From Hemileia vastatrix (Eukaryota > Basidiomycota > Pucciniomycetes > Pucciniales > Zaghouaniaceae): 64,000 nt of DNA. Position numbers and translations under genes: made by a program. A model generated the notes under the pieces. That model did not search any database, was not told where the DNA came from, and saw nothing but the letters and a program-made list of their open reading frames with translations. Of the stretch, positions 48-46,618 are shown one piece after another (position 1 is the stretch's first letter; the number at the start of each line of letters is the position of its first letter). The stretch spans positions 27,449,183 through 27,513,182 of the forward strand of contig JASXTE010000002.1 of assembly GCA_030280995.1 (NCBI GenBank), written 5' to 3'.

Positions 48-470
48 TGTTAGTCCTCCAAGACTTTAAACTGGCTACTGTTCAAGACGTTCTTTAAGGT
101 TTTTATACATATTTTGGATCTGTTAGTCCTCCAAGACTTTAAACTGGCTACTGTTCAAGACGTTCTTTAAGGTTTTTATACATATTTTGGATCTGTTAGT
201 CCTCCAAGACTTTAAACTGGCTACTGTTCAAGACGTTCTTTAAGGTTTTTATACATATTTTGGATCTGTTAGTCCTCCAAGACTTTAAACTGGATACTGT
301 TCAAGACTTTCCTTAAGGTTTTATACAAATTTTGGAGCTGTTAGTCCTCCAAGACTTTAAACTGGCTAATTTTCAAGACGGTCATTAAAGATTTTATATT
401 GGAGCTGTTAGTCCTTCAAGACTTTAAACTGAAATTAAAAGACGTTCAAGATTCTATGGATATTTTCGGA
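48..470 (+). repeat. Tandem array of a 73-bp unit containing the 22-bp motif
   Basis: Units begin at 48, 121, 194, 267, 339 and 406, so the period is 73 bp for the first four and then shrinks to 72 and 67. The first three units are nearly identical and later ones diverge. Each unit contains one motif whose reverse strand reads CAGTTTAAAGTCTTGGAGGA followed by CT. The array has no open reading frame of note. Confidence 0.9.
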
Positions 471-494
471 GACAGTTTTCTTTTTATATAAATC

Positions 495-985
495 AAATGT
501 TAGGTCCACCAAGACCTTAAACTGGACTGTTATCAAGCTGTTGGGTCCACCATGACCTTAAACTGGATTTCTTATCGATTAAATGTTTGGTCCACCATGA
601 CTTTAAACTGGTAGTTCATTCATTGTTTAGTCCACTATGACTTTAAACTGGAAAATTAATATCTGCAGGATAATTCAACATTCATTGGACCACTATGGCC
701 TTATACTGGATTACTTGTCGATCAAATGTTTGGTCCACTATGACATTATACTGGATTATCAAATTTATTCAATCTTTGGTCAAGCCTAGGCCTTACTTAG
801 GAATATATCAAGATATTTATGCACTTAAACGATCTTTGGTCCACCAAGACCATAAACTGGCAATCAATTATATGTTTGGTCTACCAAGACTTTAAATTGG
901 AATGTCAATCTTGTTTGGATAACTCAATTCAATCTTTTAATTTATCACTGTCCCCTAAGACTCTAAACTGGTTATTCAATTATTT
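495..985 (+). repeat. About ten diverged copies of the 22-bp motif
   Basis: Beyond the tandem array the motif continues at irregular 40-70-bp spacing (near 503, 545, 590, 629, 689, 731, 837, 877 and 948, with a weaker copy near 775). Typical form on this strand is GGTCCACYAWGACTTTAAAC followed by TGG. All copies have the same orientation, reading CAGTTTAAAG on the strand that encodes the 1561-2261 gene. The two small ORFs that cross this stretch are by-products of the repeats. Confidence 0.85.
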
Positions 986-1560: not shown

Positions 1561-2261
1561 TTAGAAAAGATAATTTCTTTGAAATTTTTCAACATCATTA
1601 TCAAATATTTGCATTAAAATCCTTCTTTTCATGAGGTCTTCATGGTTATTAGCTGGAGTTTCTTGAAAATAGGCCAGCATTTTACGTTTCAACTCATTAG
1701 TAAAGTCAAGAAAAAGATAGCGATGAAAATTTGGGTAATGATTGATATAGTCCGTCTTCACTCTACCAACATCATCAGTGTTGGTTATTTCGACAGCTAG
1801 AAGTTCAAATATGTTATTAAGTCATAGGTTTAGTCAATTTTGATTAAAAGTTTTTTTATTTTTTTTAGTAAGATAAATAGGTTCTTACATTTAGAGCCAG
1901 GAAACATAGTCTCAGCAAAGTTAGTTGGGGGTACTGGCGTTATAGGATTAGGATCTTGTGAAGGCAAAATTAGGCCGGGATCCGTTGATGAAGATTGAAC
2001 TTTTGAAGCTGTTTTTGATCTTATTTGTTTTAAGAAGACAGGAATTTTGGATCGCTTTTTAGAAGTTGAGGGATCAGGGAGAGCTGCTGGTCCTAAATAT
2101 ATGTTTGTTTTAGAAGGAACTATTGGCCGGTTGCATTTGACTTTTTTCACACGGCATAAGTCGCAAGCTGTTCTGCCAGGAAGATTAGGGCTGGACATTA
2201 AACAAGGTACCTGGTATCGAGCGCAGAGTTCACATGGAGTGACAAGTTCTTTGGAAGACAT
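1561..2261 (-). CDS. Small Zn-cluster protein, antisense in LTR element Z2
   Basis: Two exons: 1889-2261 and 1561-1796, with a 92-nt intron (GTAAGA donor, TTCTAG acceptor). The intron is phase 1 and joins the exons in frame to give about 202 residues. Cysteines at residues 10, 13, 20, 33, 36 and 43 follow C-x2-C-x6-C-x12-C-x2-C-x6-C, which fits the fungal Zn2Cys6 pattern; the second half, CDLCRVKKVKC, carries the basic residues. A Ser/Pro/Lys-rich linker follows, then a charged C-terminal segment in exon 2 (YFQETPANNHEDLMKRRIL) that recurs in the genes at 4020 and 61497. The start codon lies about 105 bp from the polypurine tract, on the strand opposite to the retroelement. By homology of the cluster it could bind DNA, but order and length are unlike ordinary transcription factors. 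Function is inference. Confidence 0.75.
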
Positions 2262-2369
2262 ATTGATGAAGATGAATTTTATAGTTGATTAAAGAAGATG
2301 GTGGTTGAAGGTTAAAGATGAATATTGTGTTCAACCACTTATGCAAAGTTTTAAGAATGGGGACATTCT

Positions 2370-2384
2370 CAATTGGAGGGAGGA
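2370..2384 (+). other. Polypurine tract of Z2
   Basis: ATTGGAGGGAGGA directly precedes the LTR start TGTGG. The 25 nt up to and into the LTR are the same as at the G1 3' LTR read on the minus strand, which shows that the Z and G elements are related. Confidence 0.8.
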
Positions 2385-3470
2385 TGTGGTAGCCTAAAGT
2401 TTAGTACGGCACCTAAATATGTAAATGGAGTTATTACGGCGTGCAAGATTGGCGTTATTATTTTATAAAAAGGGTTTTATTTAATTTATTTTGGAGTTTA
2501 AAATATGAAGAAATTGGTCACAAGCGAATGCCTACACAAATACAATTTATTTTACGGAGAAAATTTATTTTTACGGTCTGAAAAATTTATAAGTATCAAG
2601 TCAAGTCACTCAAGAACCTTGGGAAATTTTCCCAGAATTTTTACTATTTTTTTTTATATTTTTAAATGAATTTTAAAGTTTTATAAAAATATTTACGTTT
2701 TCAAAAATTACTTAACTTTGATGAATTTTCACGGGGTAATTAGAGCTGCGCAGACTACGAAAATTAGTTTGGTATGTAAAGGGGAAGTAGCTCTATTATG
2801 TGTAATTTTTCTAGATTTTTTATTATGGTTTTAAGGTTCTAAATTGAGTCTGGAAGTCCGGACGGACTCCGTACGGGCTCCGGATTGACTCTGGAAGAGC
2901 TCTGGAGGGGAAAACTTAGGCACGTGACTAGGAATACTTAAGCGCTTCTCAAACTCGAAATTGAGAGGGGGGACACAACATACAGCTTAATCATTAACCA
3001 CCACAGTCTCATTTTTTATTACTCAACAAATTAAATAAATTTGTAATACCCTTATAACTTTATATTTTATATAACATTTTAGAAATACTACTCAACAATT
3101 TAAATCACACTTCATACAGGGTATCTTTAGAAAGGTCTTCATCGCTGGGACTTGATTATTGCTGTCTCATATAAATTTAAATTATTATAAAAACATAAAA
3201 GTCAATCTTTTCAGATCTTTCACTGGTACACCTTAATTGTTGTTATCAGTATTTCTTTTATCAACAGCCACTTTCTTTAAATCTCAATAAGCGTTAAATA
3301 TTTTAGAGTTTCATTATTTTTATCAATCAGATCTAAGTATATTGGTTAGCTTAGTGATTTAGAACACCCATTTTGTTATTTTTATTGGAAGGACGGGGTT
3401 TTCAGCTAAATCCACATATCTCCTCCGGATTCTGCTTACAGCAAGGCGACTGTAAGAGTTTACCTTACCA
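2385..3470 (+). repeat. 3' LTR of Z2
   Basis: Begins TGTGGTAGCC after the polypurine tract and ends near TTACCA at 3470. It matches the inverted LTR at 60238-61348 in patches throughout, including a TAAAGTTTAGTAYGGCAC start, a CTCAAGAACCTT block, a segment reading TAATTTTTCTAGATTTTTTA, and an end containing GGATTCTGCTTACA. No ORF of note. GC-richer patches near 2850-2950 are also part of the LTR. Confidence 0.75.
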
Positions 3471-3971
3471 TAGCAGGCGGGCCACCCGACGTCGGAGATG
3501 CCGCATGAAGCGGCCTGGCCTCCCTGAAGCCAGAAAACCAATAAAAACCACTAATCTACTTAAAAAAATTAGCTACAACTACTAAAACCTTTAAAACACG
3601 GAATTTCACTATAACAACATTGGGACATGAAATATAGAGAAAAATTAGCTCTATCCAATGGTACTAAGCACTTAACCCTAAGACTTAAGGTTATCCCGTA
3701 AAACACGAAAAACAAAATTAAACAGCAATCTTTTATAAATGAAAAATGAGGAAATGACCCCTTAAAACTCAGAATATGAAAAATGTCTACAAGACATAAA
3801 ATATAGAGAAAAACCAGGGCTATCCAATGATAGTACTCACATACCAGAAGACCCAATATCCACGGAATAAAACCAGAAAATTACCCAATTCTTTAACAGA
3901 TGTCAATTAAGACATGCACAAACAGCGCCAAATAACAAAACAAAGGCCCCTGCCAATGTTGAAAGACCACA
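3471..3971 (-). repeat. Truncated 3' LTR of G1
   Basis: From about 3475 it matches 21343-21839 almost base for base, including CCCGACGTCGGAGATGCCGC and the ending GACCACA. The part equal to 20747-21339 is missing where Z2 joins. A hydrophobic ORF read across it on the minus strand (3569-3856) is repeated in the other LTR and is not taken as a gene. Confidence 0.85.
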
Positions 3972-3986
3972 TCCTCCCTCCAATTG
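3972..3986 (-). other. Polypurine tract of G1
   Basis: TCCTCCCTCCAATTG follows the LTR on the plus strand, so the minus strand reads CAATTGGAGGGAGGA directly before TGTGGTC. Confidence 0.8.
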
Positions 3987-4019
3987 AGAATTTCTGCATT
4001 CTTTCTTCATCCAACCACC

Positions 4020-4660
4020 ATGTTTAACCTTCTTCCCAAATCTGCCTCTGAAATGGGTCCTTGCCAATACTGCATCAACAATAATTTAATCTGCACCATG
4101 ACACCACCTGTCCATCCATATAGAACGTCCTGCGATGTCTGCCAATCCAGAAAGAAGACCTGCCACAGACCTGGTCCACTTTCTTCCACAACAGATTCAC
4201 CTCCACCTCAACCTGGTCCTTCTTCTGCCAACACCAAAAGGTCTAGGCCATCCATCCTGATACCCAGATTAATCAAAAAGCTCCACCCTTCCCAGAAGAG
4301 TGCCACAACCCATAAACCAACTAGCTCCCCCATCCCTGGTCCATCTGATGGTAAAGAACATTCATTCCTTCCTTCAACTTTAAAACTGATAACTTCTCAG
4401 TTCCTCCCTCTTCTGATAGTGATGATAACAATGTAGGATCCATTGCACCACCAACACCAACGCACTTGCCCACTATCAAGGCCAAGTTCCAACAACACAC
4501 ATCTCAACAGAAACAACTTCTGCTTCACTACTTCCAATCCACTCCTGCTAGAGATCCACAGGACATTGAGAACAGAAGACATCTCATTCACCAGTTCAAG
4601 GATAATTCTGAACACTTCATTTCCTCTCTTGATTCCCTCTGTAATTCCACTAGTACTTGA
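4020..4660 (+). CDS. X1: small Zn-cluster protein, antisense in G1
   Basis: Exons 4020-4350 and 4401-4660, with a 50-nt intron (GTAAAG donor, AACTGATAAC branch-like site, TTCTCAG acceptor). It is phase 1 and joins the exons in frame, giving about 196 residues. The chosen ATG has the favourable context ACCACCATG; ATG at residue 12 is an alternative. Cysteines at 15, 18, 25, 38, 41 and 48 give C-x2-C-x6-C-x12-C-x2-C-x6-C, the same spacing as in the 1561-2261 gene. The linker is rich in Ser, Pro and Thr, with RSRPSILIPRL. Exon 2 encodes an acidic patch (DSDDNN) and a charged, probably helical C-terminus (YFQSTPARDPQDIENRRHL). It reads away from the 3' LTR and has no visible defect, so it may be the best-preserved member here. 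DNA binding is inferred only from the cluster. Confidence 0.75.
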
Positions 4661-4718: not shown

Positions 4719-4773
4719 CCCTCAGTTTTAAGTCTTGGGGGACCATCCTCATTTTATAGTCTTGGGGGACTCA
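4719..4773 (+). repeat. Two copies of the 22-bp motif downstream of X1
   Basis: CAGTTTTAAGTCTTGGGGGA and CATTTTATAGTCTTGGGGGA, each followed by C. They are the left part of an array that continues at 13544 on the other side of E1. Confidence 0.85.
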
Positions 4774-4778
4774 AAAAC

Positions 4779-5601
4779 TGTCAAGGGTCACTTTTGGTCT
4801 AGAAGCTTTGGTACGGTGTAATATGAAGATTTTAAGGATTTTTTTTGACTCTAAATAATTAGGTATGTATTTCTCAATCAAGGATGATTCTTTTACTCAA
4901 ATTAAGATGTAGTTTTTAATAATTTATATAGATTATAGAATTAGAATTACGTATGGTGTAAATACTAAGGATATAAAATATAATAAATAAGTTTTAATTG
5001 TTGTAGTTGTAGTAAAATGAGTTGGTAAAATAGATTGATCAAAAGACAACAAAAAGAGAGGCCTTTTATAGGCAAAGGAGAGACAAAGCACGGAAATCAA
5101 ATTCTAAAAACAGTAGGAAGAGAGAGAGAAAAAGAACATTTCAGAAAGAGTATTTCACATAATAAAGTTATTCTAAAAAGAAGGCGTCAAAAAGATGTAT
5201 TTACAGAGTATGTCAGAAATACATCAATATTTTTAATATTTACTGTAAAAGTCAATCCTAAATAAGAAATTTGATTTTTTTGTATATATTTAATATTATT
5301 TGAATATTTAAATCTTATTTTATCTTTGTATTTATTTTTTAATATAAAATTTTATTTTTTCCCAACCTGTCAAATGAGCACGGTGTTAGAGAAAAATATA
5401 AGGGACAAAATTATAATTTTAATTTTAATTATTTATTTAATTAATTAATTTAATTTTAACATTCTGTAATTAGTTAATTTATTATAACTAATTTTAATGT
5501 AACTAAATGATAATTAAATAATAATTAAAAATGATAAGGTGCGGCTTCATCCAGTAAATAATTAATTATTTCACTGGGTAAGTCTAGTAGCCTGGCTGAC
5601 A
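4779..5601 (-). repeat. 3' LTR of E1
   Basis: 823 bp, nearly identical to 12716-13537; I counted fewer than ten differences, the largest near 5191-5210. On the minus strand it begins TGTCAGCCAGGCT right after the purine-rich AGAGTGAGGGAG. The ORF at 5035-5265 recurs in the other LTR and is not a gene. Confidence 0.95.
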
Positions 5602-5651
5602 CTCCCTCACTCTAAAAAAAACAATAAAAAAAAATGCTATGATTTTTTCTT

Positions 5652-6989
5652 TTAATAGTTTTTTAGTAGAGTAGGAAGATTAGATATCTCCTTCCCAGGT
5701 ATCCAAGAATCATATTCAGATGATTTATTCTTGAATCTCAATAAGTATTCTGTACCTTTCTCAGCAGTTACTAGTCTGTCATTTAAAATTTTTTCAATTT
5801 CTGCTGTCTCAGTGATTTCATTTGGGGTTTTCTTTGGTCTACCCCTCCTTTTTGGAAATAAATCACTATTGGATGTGTAAGGTTTCAAAAGAGATATTGG
5901 AAAAACAGGATGTTTTCTGTCATATGGGGAATACAGAATAACTTCAACTGCATTATCTCCAATCATTCTTCTGACAACAAAAGGACCAACAAATGGATCT
6001 TTTAATTTGTTATTACCTTGTAAGTTGAAGTTGACTGTAGAAATCAACACTTCATCACCCTTTTTAAAAGTGTATTCTTTATGGGATTTGTACCATCTTT
6101 TCTTCTCATATTCAAATAATTTTTCAATACATTTTTGAGCATGATTTCTACATAGTTGTTGCATTTGAAGAAAAGATTCTACACCAGGATGTATATCCAA
6201 TTTAGGTATTTTGTTATTGAGAATTTGGGCAGGAGTATTAGGAACATATCCCAGCCAGAGCTCAAAAGGCTTTCTTTGATTAACAGAATGAACAGTGCTA
6301 TTATAAGCAAATTCTAACCCAGGAAGTAAGGTAACCCAATCATGAGTGAATCTGTCATTATCTTTATACTCAAGGCCAAAGGCACAATATCTTCTAATCA
6401 TGTCCTCTAAAGTCTGAATCATTCTTTCAGCTAAACCATCAGTCTGAGGGTGATGGGCAGTAGAAAGTTTCAGATCACAACCACAAACATCCATCAGAGA
6501 CATCCAAAATTCAGAAGTAAATTTAGGGTCTCTGTCAGAGATTATGGCTTTAGGAAAACCAGAAGTATTAAACATATGAGACCACCATAAGAAAGCTAAT
6601 TCTTTAGTCGAAACATCCTTGTGGGTAGGGATAAATTTACACATTTTTGTGAATGTGTCCACAATAACCCAACAAGAGTTATAACTGTCTTTACCAGCAA
6701 TAGGTAATCCTGTTACAAAATCCATGTTTATTATTTGCCATGGAGCATCAGGAGGTTCAATATGTTGCATTAAACCTGCTCTTTTACCAGTTAATCTTTT
6801 TGATTTTTGGCATGAATCACAGGATTCAACATATAATTTTGTGTCCTCAGACATATTAGCCCACCAAGCAGTGTTCTTAATTCTGATCATTGTTTTGTCA
6901 AGATCAAAATGTCCAGCCAATATTTCATCATGACAAATTTTCAAGATGATTTCTTTCATAGAAGGAGGAATAACAATAACATTACTCAA
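5652..6989 (-). pseudogene. E1 pol, integrase and chromodomain
   Basis: 445 residues of integrase in one frame. Zinc-binding HHCC residues are His20, His27, Cys57 and Cys60. The catalytic triad is present: Asp90 (in NMDFVTG), Asp152 (in SDRDPKF) and Glu188 (in DGLAERM), with the typical D-x35-E spacing. FPKRRGRPKK is a basic linker. The last 45 residues, with YLLRF, SEYDSW and IPGKEI, resemble a chromodomain, which places the element among chromoviruses. Established role: joining element cDNA to host DNA, with the chromodomain guiding it to chromatin. The frame is separated from the upstream pol by a one-base loss near 7005, so it is called broken although this part is intact. Confidence 0.9.
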
Positions 6990-7390
6990 CTTTCTTCTAT
7001 AATATAGGTATCTTCATCAATTGAAAATTTTCCTTTTTCCAAAGCTTTTTGGTACTTTGGTGGAAGGGTTTTAATTAATGCTTGTATTGAAGCATTCTTT
7101 GGATCATTTAATATGGTGCATAAATTTTTCAAGTCAGTGTCCTTATCATATGATTCCAGAATAAGATGTAATAGCTCTTCCTCCATATCAACCACATATA
7201 TCCCATGGATATGGATAATTTCATCCTCAGGATCATAAGCAGGATTAGAGTCATCATTTGGTGAAGTTAACCTTGATAACATATCCACATTTGAGTGACC
7301 AATACCAGCTCTGTGAATAATTGTCATTCTCCCTCTGTACTCTTGAACAGCCAGCTGCCATCTAAACATATGTCTATTAGGTGTTTTCAA
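6986..7390 (-). pseudogene. E1 pol, RNase H end and start of integrase
   Basis: Same frame as the segment at 7415-9781 and separated from it by a TGA where the related E2 has a Cys codon (TDCSAVKS in E2). It covers the end of RNase H (MFRWQLAVQEYRGRMTIIHRAG) and the linker to integrase. It ends with a frameshift: compared with E2, one base is missing in the TATATAT stretch just before the integrase segment, which continues in the next frame from 6989. Confidence 0.85.
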
Positions 7391-7414
7391 GTTTAAAAGG
7401 GATTTAACTTCACT

Positions 7415-9781
7415 TCAGTCAGTGACAAGTTCAAATTTCTGGTCATCTAGATAATAATGGAGCTTTTCTAGAGCCCATACTACAGCTAAACACTCTAATT
7501 GAGTAGCACCATATTTCAATTCACTATTTCTCAAGGTTCTTGAAATATAAAAAATTACTACTTCTGAAACTTTATCATTTATCACTTGTTTTTGATGGAG
7601 GGCAGCACCAAGACCAATAAAACTGGCATCAGTGTACAAAACAAATGGTTGATCAAAGTCAGGTAAAGCCAGAATTGGTGCTGACATCAAACAGTGTTTC
7701 ATAGTGTCAAAGTCTCTTTGTCTTTCACTATTCCAGACAAAAGCAACATCCTTTCTAGTTAATTGGGTAAGGGGTAAAGCTATGACTTGGTAATTTTTAA
7801 TATACTGTCTATAGTATCCACACATTCCCAAAAAACTTTGGAGCTCTCTCACTCTTGTAGGAGCTTTCACCTGTTGTATGGCTGCCACTTTGTTCTGGTC
7901 AACACATATCTGTAAGCCTGAAACAACATGACCAAGAACTTTTAAAGAATGGAAACCAAATTTACATTTCTTCAAAGCAAGTGTCATATTTATTTCATCC
8001 ATTTTCTGGAATACTTTACACAGGTGTTTAAGATGGTCCGCAAATGTTTTTGAGAATATAATGATATCATCAATATAAACCATCAGCCAACCTTCAATTA
8101 TCTCTTGATGGAATGTGTTATCCATTACTTTTTGGAAAACAGAAGGGGCATTTTTAGGGCCAAATGGCATCCTAATATACTTATAAATACCCATATGAGT
8201 GGCAATCATCAGAAAGTTCTGAGAATTTTTCTCAACAGGTACCTGGTGATATCCCTTATTACCATCCAAACAGCTGATATATTTAGCACCCTGTAAAGTA
8301 GCATGTATAGAGCTGATTCTAGGTAAAGGATAGATATCATCAACAGTATAAGTATTTAGTGCTCTATAATCACCACATAACCTGGCTTTATCTTTCTCAT
8401 AAGAAATTAGGACAGGTGAGATAACACAATATTTAGGTGTTTCAACTACCTTTTCAATAATATTCATTTTTAAAAGGGTAGAGATATTATCTTCAATATC
8501 TTTTCTCTTTGTGGGAGAAGAAGGATAAGGCTTCTTCTTTAAACTAGGTGGTATATCAGTTAATGGGTAAGAAAATGAAAGTTTCATTTCCTCTTTAACT
8601 AATTCCAGTTCATGTGACCCATGAGCAAAGGCCATAGGATAAGATTTTATCAAGTTAATGATGGAATCTTTATCCTCACCAGAAAGTTGTTCTCCAAAAG
8701 AGGCATTGTCAATTTCAGACATAAGGGCATGCATTTCCTTTCTAGATCTTCCTTTATATTGAACCACAGAATTACATGTGTTCAATTCTGGTTTTAATAA
8801 TTTTTTAGGGGAGGAAATTTTAAATTTTCTCTTCCCATTCATCCCCATTGTGAAACATTGGTTTGAAGGATCCAATTTTATGCCATACTTGGTTAAAATA
8901 TCATTCCCTACAATAAACCAATTGCTCAAGTTATCATTTTTTATGACAACAAAATCACAAATAGCTCTTACAAAACCATGGTTATATTTAAAAAATACTG
9001 TGGCTTTGTATTTACCAATAAGGGACAAAACAGAGCCATACCCTCTCCAATTTTCAGAAATGATAGGCAACAGTTTAGATTTATAGTCTTGATCTACTGA
9101 GGCAAGTGCTCTTTCAGATACTACACTTCCTCCAGCTCCAGAATCCAGAACAACTTCAATGCTGGTTCCATTGATCAAGACTGGTGCCTTAAGAGGGGCA
9201 ATAACAATTGAGTTATCCTCAATGTTCTTTGTGACCTCAGCTTCCTCAACTGTAGATAAATCATTATTATCAATTTCAATAGTATTTAAATAATGAATAT
9301 CTTCTTCCAGCATCAAGATTTCTTGTTGAGATTCATATGAAATATTGCTGGCACAATCACTTGATGTATCATCCAGTGCCACTGTGTCATCAGCATGCTC
9401 CTCTGTTTGTTCTACAAGATTTATCTTCCTGTCACAAACATGGCCTTTCTGCCAAGGCTTTTTGCACTTGAAGCAAGTGTTTGTTGCATACTTCTTTGGT
9501 GCAACAGGAGCAGAAGGTTTACCAACCTTTTCCAGAGGTTTTTGTTGGTAAGTGGAGGGTTTCTCCAAAGGGGTCCTAGGAATGAATCTTCTTGCATCAT
9601 ACTTATGGTTTAGAAGTATCTCATTGCAAGTATTAATGAAAGAAGAGGTTTCTTTGGAGAACTCAGTCCTAGCCACAATCAAGTCTCTCAGAGACATTGG
9701 TAATTTATAGAGGATCCTGTCCTTCCATAAATCAAACTCCATATTTGGGTCCATTGCCCTTAAGATTTTTACAAGTTTCAT
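7415..9781 (-). pseudogene. E1 pol: nucleocapsid knuckle, protease, reverse transcriptase, RNase H
   Basis: 788 residues in one frame. Near residues 104-117 lies the knuckle CFKCKKPWQKGHVC, C-x2-C-x7-H-x-C, a known gypsy variant of CCHC. The aspartic protease motif DSGAGGS is near residue 213. RT has RLCGDYRALN, the FGPKNAPSVFQKVM region and an intact YIDD box near residue 567. RNase H begins near 715 with LYTDASFIGLGAALHQ. The active-site residues that I can check are present. The ORF is closed at both ends by single TGA stops: at its start CGA in relatives reads TGA, and at its end the Cys codon of TDC reads TGA. The element cannot make full-length pol without readthrough. Confidence 0.92.
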
Positions 9782-9817
9782 TAAAAACTCAATAGGTTTA
9801 TCAGTAGAAGAGCTATA

Positions 9818-11218
9818 TCAAGTTTCCTCATACTGCCTTTGTTGAGCCATTCTGAACTTGGAGCCACCAAATTGTGCTTTAATTAATTTCTTCCAATCCT
9901 CCCATGAGTAGTCATTCCCATCCAGGAGAACAGATTCATACCACATCAGGGCAACATTAGTGAACAAAGAAATTAATTTGGACACAATTTCCTCATCCTG
10001 GAGTTTGTAAGAATTTTTTAAATTATCAATTCTGCAAATAAATTGTTGCCAATCAGAGGAAGAATCACCATCAAATGTTGGGTACTGGTCAAGTTTTGGC
10101 CAATTCTTTTGATTTGAAGGAGTCTCCTTAGTACTAGCTTGTTTCTGAGTAAGAAGCAGCTGTAATTTCTCTAATTGTGCTGAAATCTCATTGTTTAATC
10201 CTTCTGTTGCAGATCCTGGTGCATCATCAGTTTTTGATGGAAACTCAGTGTTATCAACAGGTATTTCTGGATCAATTTTTATTTTAGATGAACTAGCCAC
10301 AGGTACTGGTTGAGCATCCTGCACTATATGTTCCTTCACAGAAATGTCAGAATATTTTTGGTCATTTAACAATGAGTTCAATTTTTCTTCAATGGTTGTT
10401 AGTCTTGTTTTCATTCTTGGAAGACTAGATAAACTTTCATTGATAGTTGCAAAAGATAATTGATTTTTATATTGAAAATATGAAAAATGGTCACTCAATC
10501 TTATCAGATTTATCTTATCTATCTCTACCTCCTAGCAACAGGCGGATACAGTATCTTTTAGTTTAGATAAATCATTTTTTATATTTTGCCATAAAGCAAT
10601 TTTCTTTTCATGGGTTGCTTTGTAATGAGACAATTCATCAGAGACTCTCTGTGCTTCACTTTTTAATGCTTGATAACCCTGATCAGTTAACAAACTATTA
10701 TATCTCTGAGTCGATTGCATATTGTTCATTATATGATTTTGCTTGGCAATAATATCTCTCAAGTGTTCATCATTAATTCTTGCTACATCTGGAGTGTTTC
10801 TCAATAAGGAAACTGAGTAACTTTCCAGACTCTCATAGAACACAGGGTCAAGAGTTTCATCAATCACAGCCATATCAGGATTAATCATTGAGGTAGCAAT
10901 TAAAAGTAATGGATTTGATACATGAGATAACTGTCTACTATTCCCAGCTTCTATAGGTCTCAAGGTTTCATCCTGCCTTCCAGATTTACCTGAAGGAATA
11001 GAGTCAGCCACAAGAAAAGGCACTTGAGAATCAATAGAGGGACGTACCAGGGTTTGCTGGGTATCACCATATTGGGCTTCCTTCTTCTTTTGCCTCCTTG
11101 ATAAGGGTGGGGAGGAGTGGGGTTGGCCTGGGTGGGCCTTGATGGACCTACCTGAGGTAACTGATGCTGATTTTGAGCCAAGTAGTCCCACTGTGTGTTG
11201 AGCCAGTCCCACTGCCAC
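9818..11218 (-). pseudogene. E1 gag: middle domain and capsid, pol-frame part
   Basis: Two stretches in one frame, 10532-11218 and 9818-10498, separated by an in-frame TAG after SACC. The first contains a region predicted to be helical (ESYSVSLLRNTPDVARINDE) and a coiled-coil-like stretch. The second holds the capsid domain: WPKLDQYPTFDGDSSSDWQQ and WEDWKKLIKAQFGGSKF, conserved in E2, E3 and E5. Frame and order match ORF 28761 of E2. The upstream limit is uncertain because the frame overlaps the other gag frame (10960-11529) and an intron-like 58-nt segment at 10990-11047. Confidence 0.75.
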
Positions 11219-11659
11219 TTGGACACTTCCACCATCTCTTGGGATTGGGGAGCCAACTGTTGTTGATCCCTGGGAGGAAGAGGTTTTCTTTTCTCTTGGA
11301 GAAAAGTATCTGTTCTTTTCACCCTTTCTTCCAAGGCATCTACCCTTACCTTTAGTTTCAAGCTGTCTGTCTTTAACTCCTTTATGTGGGTTGACAGATT
11401 CTTTATCTGCTGGGACAACGGCATCTTTTTTATCTTAAAGCCTTTTGGAAGCTCTTCTGGTGGGTTTGTCATGGGCTTCTGATCCTGAGTATTGTCCACT
11501 AGGATTTCTACTTCTTCCATTTCTACATCCTGTTTGGGGCAAGGATTTATTAGTTTGAGAAATTCTTCTTGTTAAAGGAGAACTTACAGAAGTAGGCTCA
11601 TCATAATCAATTAAGTCTAGTTCTTCTTCACGTGCAGCAAAACCACTTTGATCAGTCAT
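10960..11659 (-). CDS. E1 gag N-terminal protein, spliced
   Basis: Exon 1 is 11588-11659 (24 codons, MTDQSGF to DEPTS). A 58-nt intron follows (GTAAGT donor, ACTAATAA branch-like site, CAAACAG acceptor), and exon 2 starts DVEMEEVE at 11529. The phase-0 join has an exact counterpart in E2, E3 and E5. The protein has a basic segment (LPKGFKIKKMPLSQQIKNL), a coiled-coil-like stretch (HIKELKTDSLKLKVRVDALEERV), a Pro/Gln-rich region and an aromatic motif, SKWQWDWLNTQWDYL. There is no zinc knuckle here; capsid and knuckle are downstream in another frame. If a second 58-nt segment (10990-11047) is spliced, the protein ends at KPW, like PPLPW in E2 and E3; otherwise it reads on to 10960. Confidence 0.7.
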
Positions 11660-12715
11660 TTTATGATTCTACTGAAAAGAAGGAAAAGAGACAAAAATTA
11701 ATTAGTCTTTATTTTTAATTTTTATTTAACAGAAATAAAATAAAAATAATAAAAAAAAATCTTTTTAGGATGAAAATCAACTTAAATAAAATTAATAAAA
11801 GAAAAATTTAAAACCAGGATAATACAATCAACTGTAAAAATAAATTAGAATTTCTATTAATTTTTATTTTCAGGATTTAAATCAACTAATTTATTACCAG
11901 GATTTATTGTCAACTGAAATAATCAAATATGAATCTTTATTAATAAAAGTTATTTTAACTGATCACTTAACTACCATGACTTAATGTCAACTGAAGTAAT
12001 TTAAATATGAATTTTATTACTTAAAAAGATTTATTGGATTACCAGGACTCAAAGTCAACTGAAATAATGAAATGTTAATTATTTATTAATAAAAAAAATA
12101 TAATTGTCAGGACAATTTGTCAACTGGAACAATTAATTAATCAGGACAAATGTCAACTGAAAAATTATAATAATTATTTTATTTAATAAAAATATTATTG
12201 TCAGGACAATTTGTCAACTGGAACAATTAAAATTCAAATTAATCAGGACAATTGTCAACTGAAAAAGGATAATAATTAATATTAAAATATAATTATTTTA
12301 TTACCTCTGGGACTAAGAACAGTTATTGCTCTATTATGGTCAACCAGGAAAAAAAATAATAATAATAAAAATAAATTCCAATTACCAGACACCTCCCCCT
12401 GCAAAATGAGCAAATTAATGCCACTTACAGAGTGCTGAGTAAAAGGAAATACATAGCAAATGAAGAGTGAAGAGTAACCCACAAATAGTAATAACAATAG
12501 TTACCACAATATATACGATCTTTAGTCAGTATATGAACTTAAGTTTTGGAGCGCGGTTCGATTCCCATTTGCAGCAAAAACTTTTATCACGTGACGTATG
12601 ACGTTCGTTGTTTTCTCGCTTCCACTCGTCCTTTACAGGTACTTGTACGCCGATGGTCTCCTCAATTACGCCTCAAGTAACGTTGCGCTGTCAATATTTC
12701 GGAAAGGATCCCAGT
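11660..12715 (-). other. E1 5' leader with short CAACTGA-type repeats
   Basis: About 1 kb of untranslated leader between the 5' LTR and gag. Between 11815 and 12260 it contains roughly ten short repeats of the form CCAGGAYTTAATGTCAACTGAA or CAGGACAATTTGTCAACTGG at irregular spacing of 30-70 bp. The matching leader of E6 (59701-60237) has the same repeats. A primer-binding site is likely directly inside the LTR, where the minus strand reads ACTGGGATCCTTTCC; the same kind of sequence follows the 5' LTRs of E2 and E5. Confidence 0.6.
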
Positions 12716-13537
12716 TGTCAAGGGTCACTTTTGGTCTACAAGCTTCGGTACGGTGTAATATGAAGATTTTAAGGATTTTTTTTGACTCTAAATAATTAGG
12801 TATGTATTTCTCAATCAAGGATGATTCTTTTACTCAAATTAAGAGGTAGTTTTTAATAATTTATATAGATTATAGAATTAGAATTACGTATGGTGTAATT
12901 ACTAAGGATATAAAATATAATAAATAAGTTTTAATTGTTGTAGTTGTAGTAAAATGAGTTGGTAAAATAGAATGATCAAAAGACAACAAAAAGAGAGGCC
13001 TTTTATAGGCAAAGGAGAGACAAAGCACGGAAATCAAATTCTAAAAACAGTAGGAAGAGAGAGAGAAAAAGAACATTTCAGAAAGAGTATTTCACATAAT
13101 AAAGTTATTCTAAAAAGAAGGCGTCAAAAAGACGATTCACAGAGTATGTCAGAAATACATCAATATTTTTAATATTTACTGTAAAAGTCAATCCTAAATA
13201 AGAAATTTGATTTTTTTGTATATATTTAATATTATTTGAATATTTAAATCTTATTTTATCTTTGTATTTATTTTTTAATATAAAATTTTATTTTTTCCCA
13301 ACCTGTCAAATGAGCACGGTGTTAGAGAAAAATATAAGGGACAAAATTATAATTTTAATTTTAATTATTTATTTAATTAATTAATTTAATTTTAACATTC
13401 TGTAATTAGTTAATTTATTATAACTAATTTTAATGTAACTAAATGATAATTAAATAATAATTAAAAATGATAAGGTGCGGCTTCATCCAGTAAATAATTA
13501 ATTATTTCACTGGGTAAGTCTAGTAGCCTGGCTGACA
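12716..13537 (-). repeat. 5' LTR of E1
   Basis: 822 bp, TGTCAAGGG to GGCTGACA on the plus strand, matching 4779-5601. The next five bases, AAAAC, duplicate those before 4779. Confidence 0.95.
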
Positions 13538-13540
13538 AAA

Positions 13541-14070
13541 ACCCTCAGTTTAAAGTCTTGGGGGACTCAAAAACCTAAGTCATAAACCCAGAACCAGAGA
13601 TCAACCACATTAAGACACAGAGAAAAAACTAACATTCTGGGGTAATTGTGAATAGAGCAGCCAGCCCATCAATTACCCCCAAACTTGCCTTTGCTAAATT
13701 CGGAGGCTCCCCCTGTGGATACCCTCCACCAATCTTTCAAAACCAACTCCAACAACAAAAACTCCTTCCTCAGTTTATAGTCTTGGGGGACTTACAACCC
13801 TCAGTTTAAAGTCTTGGGGGACTAAACCAACAACAATCCTCAGTTTAAAGTCTTGGGGGACTAACACAGTGTTCAGTTTAAAGTCTTGATGGACTATCTT
13901 GACAAAATCTTGAAACCAGCCAGTTTAAAGTCTTGAAGGAATAAAAGAAACCAGATTTCAGTTTAAAGTATTGATGGACTGGTCTTGATACCATAGATTT
14001 TTCAGTTTAGAGTCTTGATGGACTGACTTGATAACATTGCTTTTTCAGTTTAGAGTCTTGATGGACTGAC
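13541..14070 (+). repeat. Nine copies of the 22-bp motif upstream of Y1
   Basis: Copies begin near 13545, 13771, 13803, 13839, 13875, 13920, 13959, 14004 and 14047. The first four read CAGTTTAAAGTCTTGGGGGA or close to it; the later ones change to CTTGATGGACT. Spacing is 30-45 bp except for a gap of about 225 bp that holds a stem-loop repeat (13631-13732). All point the same way as genes X1 and Y1. Confidence 0.9.
13631..13732. repeat. About 100-bp repeat with a stem of GGGGTAATTG/CAATTACCCC (copy 1)
   Basis: Starts CATTCTGGGGTAATTG and ends in a C-rich GGCTCCCCCTGTGG. The ten-base arms enclose about 25 nt. Related copies lie at 16590-16690, 16848-16940 and 40160-40262, always inside G elements, with changes in both arms that keep pairing in two of them. 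Confidence 0.75.
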
Positions 14071-14218
14071 CGAATTTTGCATAAAATGGACGCAGCCAAT
14101 TTCATGCAGCACACCTCTACAGCCAACCTGCTGAACTTCCACCTTCACTTCATCATCTACCCATCACTGACAAAAATCTCCTCCTATCCCTTTTCATCAT
14201 CTTTTCTCACCACAGATC

Positions 14219-15790
14219 TTGGCTGGATCTCCTGATGTTAACCCTTCTACTCTCCCTTGCTTCACTGCTCCCAAGGACTATGCCTGCAAACAGTGTATCC
14301 ACATGTGCAGACCTTGCACATTCACTCTTCCAAATCCTGAATCGAAATTCTACAACAGGGCTTGTGACTCTTGCTATTCCAAAAAGAAAAGATGTGACAG
14401 AGACGCCAACTACCCTATTCCTCCGCCTTCTCCTTCTCACAAATACATCTCCAGATCCCCTACCAGATCCCCAGAGCTTGGTCCTTCCTCTTCCTCTCTA
14501 TCTTCTGCTCCTTCCAGAAGATCCAGAAGCTCAGCTTCCCGCAGTCTTCCCAAAAGACCAGCCTTAGCCTCACAAGAAACTGCTTTTATCTCCGCCAAAT
14601 TAGCTCCAAAAGCTTCAAGATCAACTTCCAGGCTTCTAGACCACGTCCAAGCGGCCCGGCCAACGTCGGGCAGCCCGACTGCCTCACCAAACAGTGAAAA
14701 TCAGGGCCAAAACCTCCAAAAACGGCCAGAAAATAGCCAAATTCATCCAGACAACAACAACAACTCAACCCAACTACCTCCTACTGCTCCCTGAGCAATG
14801 CAACTCACCCTTCCAAAGTCCAAAAGCACCAAAATTTACCAGATTTCTAAGAGACCTGCCAGAGAACCCCAAGAAGAAACCAGAACACCACACACTGCTC
14901 CACAACAACAACTTTGTCCCCAACTAAGACAAAGAAACTACACCTCTCCTCTGTCAGCCAACTACTCTTCTGACAGTTCCATCTCTTCAAATTCTTCATC
15001 CAGAAGAGAGCAGCCTGCTTCCAAATTACCCTCTCCTGCTCCATCCTTTAACAACCCTGGTACTCCATCACCAGCACCTCCTCCAGCTGAATCCAACAGA
15101 ATTAACAACCATAACAACAACAACAATCTCACTGCTCCAACTAGGCCCCAGGAACATCAGCATCCCAGTTCACCTTCTCAGGATCCTTCAGAGGAATACT
15201 ATGAGAATCCATATCTTTCCCTAGTTGATCCACCCACTATGACAATAACACAATCGTCAGAGATCCAAATCCCAGTTGCTTACAGATTTGATGAGCTTCC
15301 AATCTGTAAGTACTAAATTAATTTATCCCATTTCTTCAACAAAAATAATTACTGATCCAATTCTTCTTGTCTAGTTGGCACCCCTCCTCCTGAATCTATT
15401 ATTGGAGTTGGCCAACCTCTTGAAACTTCTTTGACCCTGGATTATGGAGACATGAAGAAACACCTAAGCACCATGTGTTCCAACATGCTAAAAGACTTTG
15501 CCCTCCATGGACCTTTGAATGAATTTGAAAAATCCCTGAGAAGGTGCCTACTGGACGACCACTGGAAAATGTCTAGGATCATTAAACACACCCTCCAGCA
15601 CTCCATTCCTGCCTCTTCTTCTTCCTCCTCTGAACTTCCCTCTAATCCAATTCCTGACCATTACAATCCCTATCATCTCTCCAGCAGGATGCACTTCAAA
15701 GAACACAGTGCTACCCACAATCCCAACAAAAAACAAAAACGTCATCACAATCCGGACCAGCCTCCAGAAGCTTCATCATCCAGACAATGA
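14219..15790 (+). pseudogene. Y1: longer Zn-cluster gene of G1, one in-frame stop
   Basis: Exon 1 is 14219-15305 and exon 2 is 15375-15790, with a 69-nt intron (GTAAGT donor, TGTCTAG acceptor) that joins in frame as phase 1, as in X1. Cysteines at 23, 26, 33, 49, 52 and 59 give C-x2-C-x6-C-x15-C-x2-C-x6-C, with CDSCYSKKKRC as second half. A long Ser/Pro/Arg linker follows, an Asn-rich tract (15106-15128), then acidic DPSEEYYENPYLSLVDPP. Exon 2 encodes a charged C-terminal domain (LTLDYGDMKKHL to DDHWKMSRIIKHTL). A TGA at 14792-14794 interrupts exon 1, with the same frame open on both sides. The first codon is TTG where the related 51509 locus has ATG. Both could be decay; about 500 residues would result without the stop. 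Confidence 0.7.
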
Positions 15791-16227: not shown

Positions 16228-16589
16228 TTCTATATTTTTGATTTTATAATTTTAAACAACCCCCATAAAAAATTAAAAGAAAAAAAGAGAAAAAAGAAAA
16301 TAATCTAAAACTGCTATCTAGCAAAAACATAACTGCAAAATCAAAGAAAGTCCAGCTCCATAGATGGTCCAATAACGGAAAGTCCGATCCATAGAAATGA
16401 TCACTTGGTGGGCTCCCTCCAATAAGTAAAAATGATGGGAGACCACCAGTGATCCACCACCAATCTGAAAGAAGCAAAAATAAAGAAGCCAGTCCCAAAC
16501 CAGTTTAAAGTCATAGTGGACTTAAAACCTGAATAATAAACAACAGAACTAGAATTCAACTAGGAAAAGCAAAGACTTGAAACAGACAT

Positions 16590-16690
16590 TCTGGGGTAAC
16601 TGTTCTACAGAGAAGCCAGCTCATCAGTTACCCCCACACTTGCCAAAATAAAATCTAGAAGCCCCCCCTGGGTACCTTCTAAGAAAAACA
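16590..16690. repeat. 100-bp repeat with GGGGTAACTG/CAGTTACCCC stem (copy 2)
   Basis: Arms are GGGGTAACTG and CAGTTACCCC, pairing perfectly although both differ from copy 1. The right part, TAGAAGCCCCCCCTGGGTACC, also corresponds. Confidence 0.75.
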
Positions 16691-16847
16691 CAACATCCAA
16701 CACAAAAAAAACCAAAACCAATAAACAGTGAAGAATCCAGCACTTGACAACCAGAGGAAATTCCAGTTTAAAGTCATAGAGGACTAAAACCTGTGAAAAG
16801 AAACCAATACTAGGGTTCAACCAAATTAAGAGAAAGGGTTGGAAACA

Positions 16848-17036: not shown

Positions 17037-18950
17037 TTAAACTTTTTCATGCCTAGTGCCTCTGGGATAAAACCTCTTCACTTGGTCTGCAGCCACCCTC
17101 TTTTTCAAGACTGCACCATCCAACTCTTCCAAAACATAAGAACCTCCAGATGCCTGAGATCTGACTCTGTAAGGTCCATTCCATCTGTCAGCAAACATTT
17201 TCCCCCACTGACTCTCCAAACTTCTATTATACACCAAAACCAAACAACCAGGTTTCAAGGGATTCTTGAGTCTATGAGCCAGCTTCTTGTCCCAGTACCT
17301 GACTGATTGATTCCTAATCTTAATCATTCTAGAGTATTCCTTCTCCTGACATTCCTCTCTACATTCCAAGTGTTGCATCCTGGAACAGAGCAATTCTTCT
17401 GTTGAGTGCACATCTTCCCAATCAATTCCAAGATAAGAGACAGCTTCCAAGTCCACTGGTAGAACGGCTTTCTGACCAAATATTAACTCATAAGGAGAAT
17501 AGCCAGTTGTCCTCTTCACAGTGACCCTATCAGCAAATAACACCAAGGGTAAATAATGCCTCCACTTTTCAGCACTATCTCCGCACATCTTCACCAAAGC
17601 ATTCTTGATAACTTGATGGCCTCTTTCAGCCATGCCTTCAGCTTCAGGATAATACTGTGTAGCCACTCTAACTTTAGAACCAACACTAGCCACAGCTTCT
17701 TTAAACTCGGCACCAAACTCTGGCCCACCATAAACAGTCACCAACTTCATTAACCCATACCTATAAATCCACTCCTTCTTCAAAAACTCTGCCACATTCT
17801 TGGCAGTCAAATTAACCAGAGGCACTGCCTCAACCCAACCAGACAAATCATCCCTAGCAACAATCAAGTATTTATACCTGCCCTCTTTTATATGGACAGC
17901 AACCAGACTGACTCTTCCAAAAACAGTTGATTCTCCAGTAGCACAGCCCACCTCTTTAGGTTTCAAGTGACTTCTTCTTTGACATTCTTCACAAGATTGA
18001 ACCCAACCCTGCACAGCCAACTTCATACCTGGCCACCAAAATCTGTCTGCTACTCTTCTATAAGTCTCCCCAAAGCCTCTATGACCAAGGTCTTCATGCA
18101 AAGGCTTCAAAACCAATTCTTGACCCTTCTTCTGAGTCACCACCACTTGAGGGTTTGTATGTCTCCTCCTCATCAACCGCCTTCCTGACACATAAAATCC
18201 AGGACTCTTCCTCTTGATTGCCAACCAATTATCATCATCACAACTATCTGGCCTCTCCAAGGTCAACAGATATTCCACCAAAATAAAATAAAAACCAGAC
18301 TGACCCCAGGTCTCATCTTCAAAATCCAACAATACCACATCCAAGGGTACCATTCTGTCATCAAAATCACCAGTATGAACATGAGCCAATTGAGAAGCCC
18401 AACCAGGACACCAATCCTTAAATTTTGGCACGTCCTTCTCTTTCCACTGAACCTTGTGAGAATCCAGTTCACTAACAAAAACACCCTTTTCCAAATTTGA
18501 GCTGTCCCAAACAACAACTCCATCTTCATCAACAAAAACATCCTGATCACCAGAATCAAGATCAGATCCAGCCAGTTTAGCCTCTTGGGGGAGGTCAGAA
18601 CAATCGTCCAGTTTAGCCTCATGGGGGAGGAGAGAAAAATCCTCAGCACCCTTTGTGCTGGCCCTAACCACTGGAACATCTTCGTCAAACTTTTCAGCAT
18701 CAGAATCCTCATCTGTAGGTGGCCTCCTTGATAATCCATCAGGCATAGTAAAAGTTTTACCTGGTTTGTGTACCAGGTCAAAAGAAAAATGTTGAATAAA
18801 TGCCACCCACCTAGTCATTGGAGCATTTGGAAGACTAGGTGTATTGATCATCTGAACCAAAGACTTTGCATCCACCTGCAGCTCAAAATGCTGCCCCCAC
18901 AAAACCATCTGTAGCTTCTTTAAAATTTTAGCTACGCCACACAATTCCAA
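17037..18950 (-). pseudogene. G1 pol: RNase H end and integrase
   Basis: 637 residues in the same frame as 18972-19886, separated by one TAA. The start (QPKLELCGVAKIL in the frame, FELQVDAKSLVQMI) is the end of RNase H. A Glu/Asp-rich linker follows. Integrase has His/His/Cys/Cys in HEDLGHRGFG and CEECQRRS. The core keeps Glu in AEGMAERG, but the middle Asp is replaced by Tyr in VTVYGGPEF and the first Asp is not at its usual place (SLVAVHI). I therefore expect no integrase activity. The linker contains two copies of EAKL encoded by DNA that resembles the 22-bp motif (18573 and 18609). No chromodomain was seen. Confidence 0.85.
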
Positions 18951-18971
18951 CTTAGGTTGAGAATACCTAGA

Positions 18972-19886
18972 TTACACCTCATTAAACACCACAGACTCAT
19001 ACCTTACTGGCCTGACCCTCCCAGTCTTATCCTCCTGAGACAAAACAGCACCAGCAGCAATATAACTTGAGTCCACTGCCAGATAAATTTTTCCAGCACC
19101 AACCCCATAATCCAACTTGTGAAGAACAATATTTTTACCAACAACCTTTTTCAACTTCTGAAAAGCCTCTTCACACTCTTCAGTACATTCCCAATCTGCA
19201 TCTTTTCTGGTCAACCTCCTTAAAGGTGAAGCCAACAAAGAAAAATCCTTAATAAAAATCCTGAAATATACACATACGTTCAAAAATCCCCTGACTTCAG
19301 TAGTATCTTTAGGCCTTGGCCATGACTGGATTTTATTAATCTTCTTCTTCGCCATAATCCTTCCCTCTCTACATACCACATGACCCAGAATTTCCAAAGC
19401 AGGAACACAACAACAGAATTTTGACCCTGAAATGGTCAAACCAGCCTCTTCAATCCTAAACAACACTCTCTCTAGAGTTATTGCATATTCCCACACAAAC
19501 CTCCTTACACCAGGGCTCTCCGCTAACACCTCATTACCATAATCAGTGGATGGTCCTTTAATTCCACCATCATAAATAAAAATACCAGCATGAGTAGGAA
19601 CCTCATACTGCAAAATCCAAGCCATCTGTGCTTGATAAACTGCCACTGAATTAGTTGCTCCTTGAGGAAACCTAGTGAGCTGAAATCTTCCCAAAGGAGT
19701 CTCAAAAGTTGTGAGAGGCCTTGAATCCGTATGGAATTCCCTCTCATCATAACCACCCATAATATCACCCAAACCATAACACACCCTTCCAGAAAAAGCT
19801 TCAACAAAATCCTCTGCACTTGGTGGCATACCAGCATCCTTGATAGTGACTCTATTCAAGGCTCTAAGATCATGAACCACCCTCAA
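18972..19886 (-). pseudogene. G1 pol: reverse transcriptase and RNase H start
   Basis: 304 residues. RT features are MRVVHDLRALN, GGYDEREFHTDSRPLTTF, TPLGRFQLTRFPQGATNSVAVYQ and LEILGHVVCREGRI, a type of gypsy RT common in basidiomycetes. The catalytic box, usually FxDD, reads FIYDGG, so the first Asp is Tyr and the enzyme is probably dead. RNase H begins with YLAVDSSYIAAGAVLSQ. Stops close both ends: TGA where relatives continue VKKNGK, and TAA before SRYSQPKLEL. Confidence 0.85.
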
Positions 19887-19889
19887 CTT

Positions 19890-20708
19890 TCAATTCTGCT
19901 TCTTTACACAGAAAACCGGACTTGAGTAGCTGGATGTTGATTGTTCATATAACCCAGTCCTGACTCTTTCCCTAACAATCTCCACAAAATCCTCTCTAAT
20001 AGCGGCTTGAATCGTAATAGGTTTGATTTGCCAAGGTTCATGACAAACCACAGGAATCAAGTAAGTTTCCCCATAAGAGTGCTTCAACACACCGCTTTCC
20101 TCCTCAACAAACGCCACAGCTTTTTCCCTTAGCACAGTAACGTGCAACAATAACTTCTTTTCTTCCTCAGACAACCACCCATCATGACCAAAATTAACAA
20201 CTTTCAATCTTTCCACAGTCACCCTAGCCGTCTCTACAAATTCTGGAGGATTCTTCACCAAAGGAGTACAGTACGGATCTCTTGAAAAAGGAGGTCTCTT
20301 CAAAGGCGGATTCAAACCCACAGGCATAGGCTCATTGACAGGCCTAATCTTCTGCGCTACCTTCTTATACTTTGCCGCTCCACCTTCAACTTGTGGGATC
20401 TTCAGGAAATCTTCACCACCAGACCTGGAACAAAACCCAAGGGTTTCCCCATTGCTCACATGTGTGGCCAAGGTAATGTTTTTGAAAGGTGTAGAAGAAA
20501 CCCTAACGGTGCACATTTGGGAGGACTTACTTTTAGACCTCAATCTCACCACTCCAAAACTTTTCCGCAATTCCACATCTTTGTCCTCACCTCCAACTTC
20601 CAAATCTTCAAATCTTGATTCATCTTCTGAACCACATCTTCTAAAATTGTGCAGTATATCCTCATGCTGGAGGCCCAAAAATCGATCTTGATGATCTTCA
20701 TTCTTCAT
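19890..20708 (-). pseudogene. G1 pol N-terminal region
   Basis: 272 residues in the same frame as the RT segment. The second half, AAKYKKVAQKIRPVNEPMP to EEEKKLLLHVTVL, and the end, IVRERVRTGLYEQSTSSYSSPVFCVKK, are the conserved stretch before RT in this gypsy type. I recognise no capsid, zinc knuckle or protease in the first half. The start codon lies only about 20 nt inside the primer-binding site, so there is no room for a separate gag upstream. Gag was either lost from this copy or supplied by another element. Confidence 0.75.
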
Positions 20709-20725
20709 AATTTTCTGCAGTTTAA

Positions 20726-20742
20726 CCCCATGTTGGGCGCCA
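20726..20742 (-). other. Primer-binding site of G1
   Basis: The minus strand reads TGGCGCCCAACATGGGG, four bases inside the 5' LTR. This is like the tRNA-Lys type of primer-binding site known from retroelements that begin TGGCGCCCAAC. It differs from the site used by E1, E2 and E5. Confidence 0.8.
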
Positions 20743-20746
20743 GAAA

Positions 20747-21839
20747 TGTAGACAATCCTATAGTACTAGCTATAGGCCTTGACCAAGGGAGTTGGAGAAA
20801 AACCAGAGAGAAAATACCCTGTCCCTTTAGAAAAATAGAGTCAGATTTAGTTGCTAAAGTAAGTTGGTTCCTGTTTTGCTAAAGCTCCTGTTTAACACAC
20901 TTGACTGCTTGATGAGCTAAGAAAGTAGTCCCCAGATAGACTACCAGACCAAAGAACTGAAATGTAGAACTATGTCCACACCAGAGACAGCAAAGATACT
21001 TGATGTAGGCTGCAAATCCACACCAGAGACAGAAATAATACTTGCTATAGCTTGCAAGACTATAACAGAGAAAACAGTTGCCAAAGTTAAGTTAAATGAA
21101 GAATTCACTTGCAAAAAACACAGCCAATTGTGGCCAGAAAACAGTGAAAACTGAGTGAGGAACAATGATATCACCTCCGGATGGTTGTATGATGATTAAG
21201 GTTGCCCCAAACTGTCTTATTCACTATGTACACACAGACCACTAACTAAGAGCCCATGCGCACCCACCAATCTGGCACCTGTACCCGCCAAATTGCATAA
21301 AAAACCCTCCTGGAGCGCTCCCCAACCTCCTGAAACAGAGGCAGGTGGGCTGCCCGACGTCGGAGATGCCGCCTGAAGTGGCTCGGCCTCCCTGAAGCCA
21401 AAGAACCAATAAAAACCACTAATCTACTTAGAAAAATTAGCTACAACTACTAAAACCTTTAAAACACGGAATTTCACTATAACAACATTGGGACATGAAA
21501 TATAGAAAAAAATTAGCTCTATCCAATGGTACTAAGCACTTAACCCTAAGACTTAAGGTTAGCCCATAAAATACAAAAAACAAAATTAACCAGCAATCTT
21601 TTATAAATGAAACATGAGGAAATGACCCCTTAAAACTCAGAATATGAAAAATGTCTTCAAGACAAAAAATATAGAGAAAAACCAGGGCTATCCAATGATA
21701 GTACCCACATACCCGCAGACCCAATATCCATGGAATAAAACCAGAAAAATACCCAATTCTTTAACAGATGTCAATTAAGACATGCACAAACAGCGCCAAA
21801 TCACACAACAAAGGCCCCTGCCAATGTTGGAAGACCACA
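20747..21839 (-). repeat. 5' LTR of G1
   Basis: 1093 bp with ends TGTAGAC and GACCACA on the plus strand, so TGT...ACA in both directions. The inner half matches 3471-3971 closely, and the whole is related to the decayed LTR at 38387-39267. A 42-bp subrepeat (ACACCAGAGACAG) occurs at about 20979-21085. Small ORFs across it are repeated with the LTR and rejected. Confidence 0.88.
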
Positions 21840-38386: not shown

Positions 38387-39267
38387 TGTATATAATCCTA
38401 TAGTACTAATTGTGGACCTTGATAAGGGAGTTAAAGAAAAACCAGAGAGAAAATCCCTTGTTACTTTGAGAAATACCAGGTGAGATTAATTTGCTACAGC
38501 GAATTCTAGACTGTTACAATACCCCTTCCAACACACTTCTTGACTTCTTAACAAGTCAAAAAAGTAGCCTAGATAGACTACAGACCAATAAAAACCTGAA
38601 ATGCAGAAATATCCATATAAGAAAACCAAAACACTGTGAACTTGTTGCACAGAAAACAGCAATAATACTTGATGCAGGTTGCAAAGCTACACCAGAGAAA
38701 ACAGTTGCCAAAGTTAAGTTAAAAGAAGAACTAAACTTTCAACAAACCCAGAAAATTGTGTCCAAAAAACAATGTAAACAGAGTTCAAATCAGTAATCTA
38801 ATTACCAGATGGTTGTATGATAATTAAAGTTTCCCCAAACTGTCTTATTCAGTATGTACACACAGACCCCTATCTAAAAATGTATGCTACAGCAACTAAT
38901 TTGACTTTTCTTCCAGCCAAATTGCATGAGAACCCTCTAAAATCGCTCCCCAGAATGCTAAAGTAGAGGCGGGAAGGGTGCCTGAGGCCAGGGGGCCTCC
39001 TGAAGCCATAAAACCACCAAAAAACAACTAAAAACCCTAAAAAACAAGAGAAACACTTTATACCTTAAAATATGCTAAAAATTCATCAAGACATGATATA
39101 TAAAGAAAAACCTTGGCTATCAAATGAAAAAAGTCTCATCTTCATACCTCCAATATTCATCCTGTTAATCCAGAAAAACATCCTTATCAAAATCAGTTCC
39201 ATTTAAGTCGTCACTAAACAGTACCAAAATACACAGCAAAGGCCCCAGCCAATTTTGTATTAAAAAA
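38387..39267 (-). repeat. 3' LTR of G2, decayed
   Basis: Opens TGTATATAATCCTATAGTAC and continues AGGGAGTT, AAAACCAGAGAGAAAAT as in 20747-20815; the later part is also related (CCCCAAACTGTCTTATTCA). It is about 880 bp, shorter than the G1 LTR. The polypurine tract follows at 39268 (TCCTCCCTCCAATT on plus). Confidence 0.75.
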
Positions 39268-39350
39268 TCCTCCCTCCAATTAAAAGTTTCCACATTCTTT
39301 CTGCTCAAACATCTACCATTTTCAAACATTTTTCAAAATCAATCTCTGAA

Positions 39351-40018: not shown

Positions 40019-40106
40019 CCCCAGTTTAAAGTCTTGGGGGACTAACAGCCCTCATTTTATAGTTTTGGGGGACTCAAAATCCTTGGTTTAAAGTCTTGGG
40101 GGGCTC
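40019..40106 (+). repeat. Three copies of the 22-bp motif downstream of X2
   Basis: CAGTTTAAAGTCTTGGGGGA at 40022, CATTTTATAGTTTTGGGGGA near 40053 and a copy near 40084 with GGTTTAAAGTCTTGGGG. Same position relative to X2 as the 4719 copies relative to X1. Confidence 0.85.
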
Positions 40107-45022: not shown

Positions 45023-45027
45023 GGGGC

Positions 45028-46549: not shown

Positions 46550-46618
46550 TAATATCTTTAATTATTTCAGCATTTTCCACTGAAGATAAATCCAATACAC
46601 ATTCTTTGGATATTTTAT

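What the first reader, a model, noticed from the sequence alone, without database searches (positions are those of the whole stretch)
1561..4660. LTR retroelements that carry Zn-cluster genes on the antisense strand, next to the 3' LTR
In all four places where the polypurine tract and 3' LTR of this group are visible (2385, 3971, 39267, 61348), a Zn-cluster gene or its remains begins within about 50-150 bp of the tract and reads away from the LTR on the opposite strand. Two element types (Z and G) share this, and G carries a second, longer gene (Y1, Y2). Gene structure is constant: cluster exon, phase-1 intron, helical exon. Antisense ORFs between pol and the 3' LTR are known from some plant gypsy elements, but I do not know of a Zn2Cys6-like gene in this position. 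Inference: the protein may control the element or its neighbours, perhaps from an antisense promoter in the LTR.
Basis: partly seen in the sequence, partly recalled or inferred. Interest (0 to 1): 0.88.

Follow-up and report, generated by a model that had tools for sequence, protein, structure and literature searches.

The report
Antisense regulator genes inside fungal retrotransposons
Two abundant families of retrotransposon in what is probably a rust-fungus genome carry, back to front next to their end repeat, small genes for a zinc-cluster protein that looks DNA-binding, together with arrays of one DNA word with a palindromic core, which suggests a mobile element with its own regulator and binding sites.

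Summary
At all four polypurine-tract/3' LTR junctions a Zn-cluster gene or its remains starts 34-134 bp from the tract on the opposite strand; all six such genes found in the window lie in Z and G elements. The 747.6-Mb genome has 2,755 exact tract copies. Of the first 30, taken without regard to genes, 23 have the gene: 21/21 G-type, 2/9 Z-type. The other seven share one deletion of this gene, found 992 times genome-wide against 1,131 gene-bearing junctions. The proteins are under purifying selection. The cluster resembles Zn2Cys6 with its halves swapped. New here: a 22-bp word with palindromic core forms same-strand arrays in these elements (38 of 38 window copies; 14,627 exact genome copies); gene-less copies keep the array. 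Best reading: an element-borne trans-acting DNA-binding regulator and its cis sites. Expression and binding are untested. It works like plant Retand antisense genes, HBZ or VANC but belongs to none: a new variant of a known kind.

The parts
1889..2261 (-). [not shown]
   Evidence: open frame; 150 of 150 scored genome matches open (best-first list of 8526 candidates)
1797..1888 (-). [not shown]
   Evidence: splicing inferred from sequence
1561..1796 (-). [not shown]
2370..2384 (+). [not shown]
2385..3455 (+). [not shown]
52..970 (-). [not shown]
3473..3971 (-). G1 3' LTR, cut off at about 3462-3473
   Evidence: 94.6% to 21341-21839
3972..3986 (-). G1 polypurine tract
4020..4350 (+). G1 Zn-cluster gene, exon 1
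   Evidence: 149 of 150 scored genome matches without a stop (best-first list of 11283 candidates)
4351..4400 (+). G1 phase-1 intron
   Evidence: splicing inferred
4401..4660 (+). G1 exon 2 (helical)
4723..4772 (+). G1 array, first part (2 copies)
4779..13537 (-). A-type Gypsy element inserted in G1; target duplication AAAAC
13546..14068 (+). G1 array, second part (9 copies), upstream of Y1
14171..15790 (+). Y1, second and longer Zn-cluster gene of G (one in-frame stop in exon 1, donor 15306, exon 2 from 15375; start codon unresolved)
16501..16786 (+). two further copies of the word between Y1 and pol
17037..20765 (-). G1 pol (RT, RNase H, integrase) with two in-frame stops; no gag or protease match in the stretch before RT in this copy
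20718..20742 (-). G1 primer binding site TGGCGCCCAACATGGGG...
   Evidence: matching tRNA not searched for
20747..21839 (-). G1 5' LTR
38387..39268 (-). G2 3' LTR
39318..39940 (+). G2 Zn-cluster gene, broken
40022..40106 (+). G2 array, first part (3 copies)
40281..51037 (-). A-type element inserted in G2; target duplication GAAAC
51093..51352 (+). G2 array, second part (7 copies), upstream of Y2
51470..53000 (+). Y2, broken, with an expanded 9-bp minisatellite
60250..61348 (-). [not shown]
61349..61363 (-). [not shown]
61497..62170 (+). [not shown]

Best explanation
Z and G are Ty3/Gypsy elements. Between pol and the 3' LTR, on the opposite strand, they carry spliced genes for small proteins with a permuted Zn2Cys6-like cluster, a basic stretch and a helical domain. 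The proteins are probably made from a short antisense transcript that starts in or next to the 3' LTR, enter the nucleus and bind, as dimers, the word with core AGTC-N6-GACT that the element repeats in arrays on the same strand. So each element would carry a trans-acting regulator and its cis sites. Shown: anatomy, linkage in gene-blind and gene-first samples, purifying selection, arrays, symmetry of the core, and gene-less derivatives that keep arrays. Inferred: transcription, splicing, zinc binding, DNA binding, dimers, and the pairing of this protein with this word. Whether it activates or protects from silencing (VANC-like) or represses (HBZ-like) is open; I lean to a positive, shareable function, because gene-less copies kept gag-pol and the array and still spread.
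Confidence: 0.5

Rival explanations
1. The word is an RNA stem-loop (packaging, dimerisation or processing signal of the element RNA) and the Zn-cluster protein is an RNA-binding or nucleocapsid-like helper.
For: The arms covary as a stem would; nearly all copies have one orientation; copies occur inside pol; gene-less copies keep the array.
Against: The cluster resembles DNA-binding Zn2Cys6 domains, not CCHC knuckles; L039, L041 and L042 have their own frame with a retroviral-type protease ahead of pol.
Confidence: 0.15
2. The protein is a self-limiting repressor, HBZ-like, and the gene-less Z derivative spread by losing it.
Against: 21 of 21 G loci keep the gene; a trans repressor from other copies would still act on gene-less copies that keep the sites.
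Confidence: 0.2
3. The antisense transcript itself (double-stranded RNA or promoter interference) is what matters; the protein is incidental.
For: Antisense transcripts of LTR elements are proposed to act in this way (PMC7264820, parts 1 and 2 read).
Confidence: 0.08
4. A host transcription-factor gene was captured and rides along without a role in the element.
For: The genome has Zn_clus matches of its own (13 over the E limit).
Against: Five of eight of these that could be read in frame have the usual half order; the element genes are permuted and had no homologue in 5.8 billion proteins (word-limited search); three related genes (Z, G, Y) share structure.
Confidence: 0.05

Closest known systems
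Plant Retand, Grande and RIRE2 antisense ORFs between pol and 3' LTR (PMC11963269: abstract, passages and the Discussion read; PMC7264820: parts 1 and 2 of 3 read)
   Same: Ty3 element, antisense gene between pol and 3' LTR, predicted DNA binding, tandem repeats in the same region
   Different: TRP28 instead of a permuted Zn cluster; repeats there are described as family-specific and without known function, here one word is shared by two diverged families
Boty of Botrytis (named in PMC7264820; original paper not seen)
   Same: fungal LTR element with an antisense ORF
   Different: no Zn cluster or word array mentioned in what I read; the protein was not compared here
HBZ of HTLV-1 (search listing with openings of abstracts only)
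   Same: antisense gene for a DNA-binding-type regulator, transcribed from the 3' LTR
   Different: bZIP, retrovirus of people; word arrays not known to me
VANC of VANDAL transposons (PMC5735166: passages read)
   Same: element-borne protein that binds a short word accumulated in arrays in the element
   Different: DNA transposon of a plant (recalled), different protein; binding was shown there, not here
Fungal Zn2Cys6 transcription factors (PF00172; GAL4, LAC9, PPR1)
   Same: six cysteines in two C-x2-C-x6-C halves, ACDxCR..K.KC half, similar predicted fold
   Different: order of the halves swapped, small protein, borne by a retroelement

Membership tests
Ty3/Gypsy LTR retrotransposon | LTRs, PBS, PPT, protease-RT-RNase H-integrase order | tested here: met
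   [not shown]
Ty3/Gypsy LTR retrotransposon | target duplication at the ends | not tested
   shown only for the A-type insertions, not for G1 or Z themselves
Retand-type antisense aORF elements | antisense ORF between pol and 3' LTR | tested here: met
Retand-type antisense aORF elements | TRP28 domain (PF04195) | tested here: not met
   [not shown]
[quoted passage not shown]
Zn2Cys6 (PF00172) | score over the Pfam cut-off | tested here: inconclusive
   [not shown]
Zn2Cys6 (PF00172) | basic CxxCR..K.KC half first | tested here: not met
   [not shown]
Zn2Cys6 (PF00172) | fold | tested here: inconclusive
   [not shown]
HBZ | bZIP domain | tested here: not met
   no bZIP in Pfam scans
HBZ | spliced antisense transcript from the 3' LTR | not testable with these tools
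   no RNA data; splice signals in sequence only
VANC/VANDAL | DNA transposon host element | tested here: not met
   elements are Ty3
VANC/VANDAL | protein binds the arrayed word | not testable with these tools
   arrays present, binding unknown

The most novel reading that the evidence does not exclude
Z and G are retrotransposons with a full cis-trans control system: antisense genes for a new, circularly permuted class of Zn2Cys6 protein, and thousands of near-palindromic sites that it reads, so that one protein could address thousands of element copies at once; gene-less copies that keep the sites would be cheaters living on the shared factor.
Probability: 0.35. Interest if true: 0.87.

Novelty: new variant of a known kind. 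Interest (0 to 1): 0.7.

Why it matters
Antisense genes next to the 3' LTR are known in plant elements without a known target. Here a gene with a recognisable DNA-binding-type cluster sits beside a well-defined word with a palindromic core in thousands of copies, with a natural comparison between gene-bearing and gene-less copies of the same family. That makes the open question of what such genes do directly testable. If the pairing holds, it would show in fungi the kind of element-borne regulation seen with VANC in plants and HBZ in a retrovirus, with a new arrangement of a very common fungal DNA-binding domain.

Tried and rejected

Literature: searches. One search (Zn2Cys6 with LTR retrotransposon and antisense) gave 0 papers; of 236 papers the 10 listed do not hold 'circularly permuted'; two rust-genome papers were checked by term only, with 0 occurrences of 'antisense' and 'zinc'. 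So 'not in print' means not found by these searches in an open-access library.

Full report

Whole genome. The genome search answered seven times. RT of G has 183 relatives with E <= 0.001; the best is 70% identical and unnamed. Among the 120 listed, the rows that name an organism are Austropuccinia psidii except three: Puccinia striiformis, Phenoliferia and Hypsizygus. A rust fungus is therefore likely, but no call names the host.

Full elements. In four 10-kb stretches, gene-bearing Z (L039) has a frame ahead of pol, pol, array, Zn gene and no Y; gene-less Z (L040, L042) has the same without the Zn gene; G (L041) has a frame ahead of pol, pol, Y, array and G gene. The frames ahead of pol in L039, L041 and L042 hold a retroviral-type aspartyl protease (the capsid part is not recognised by Pfam; L040 not scanned). 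Some pol frames are interrupted. So G1 of the window probably lacks gag-protease by deletion, and the two gene-less Z copies read kept everything else that was looked for.

Mechanism. Shown: position, structure, selection, arrays, gene-less derivatives with sites. Inferred: antisense transcript, DNA binding, pairing of protein and word. The simplest story is a trans-acting regulator with cis sites, with gene-less copies using the factor of others. A repressor, or an RNA-level role, is not excluded. It works like Retand antisense genes, HBZ and VANC, and is a member of none of them by the tests above.

Noticed in passing
window 11893-12223 and 59807-60062: A-type elements, in which no Zn gene was found in the window, have their own repeated word in the 5' leader (TTTCAGTTGACATTAAGTCCTGGTAAT; 10 copies with up to 8 mismatches against 0.7 expected).
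   Followed up: partly
window 52019-52745: A 9-bp minisatellite (CACCAATAA units) has expanded inside the broken Y2 gene where Y1 has a short Asn-rich stretch.
   Followed up: no
window 28758-33410: An A-type element has a 1550-codon open frame on the plus strand; its LTRs are 99% identical.
   Followed up: no
[not shown]
   Followed up: partly
L001-L005, L007, L008: Seven of the eight fetched Zn_clus matches lie on contigs under 60 kb, one (L006) on a 33-Mb contig; the small contigs may be contaminants.
   Followed up: no
window 23821-25017: Three units of about 460 bp, 71-89% alike, of unknown nature.
   Followed up: no
L039, L040, L042 (pol region): Copies of the word lie inside pol coding sequence with both arms changed in a matching way (CCTC...GAGG).
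   Followed up: partly
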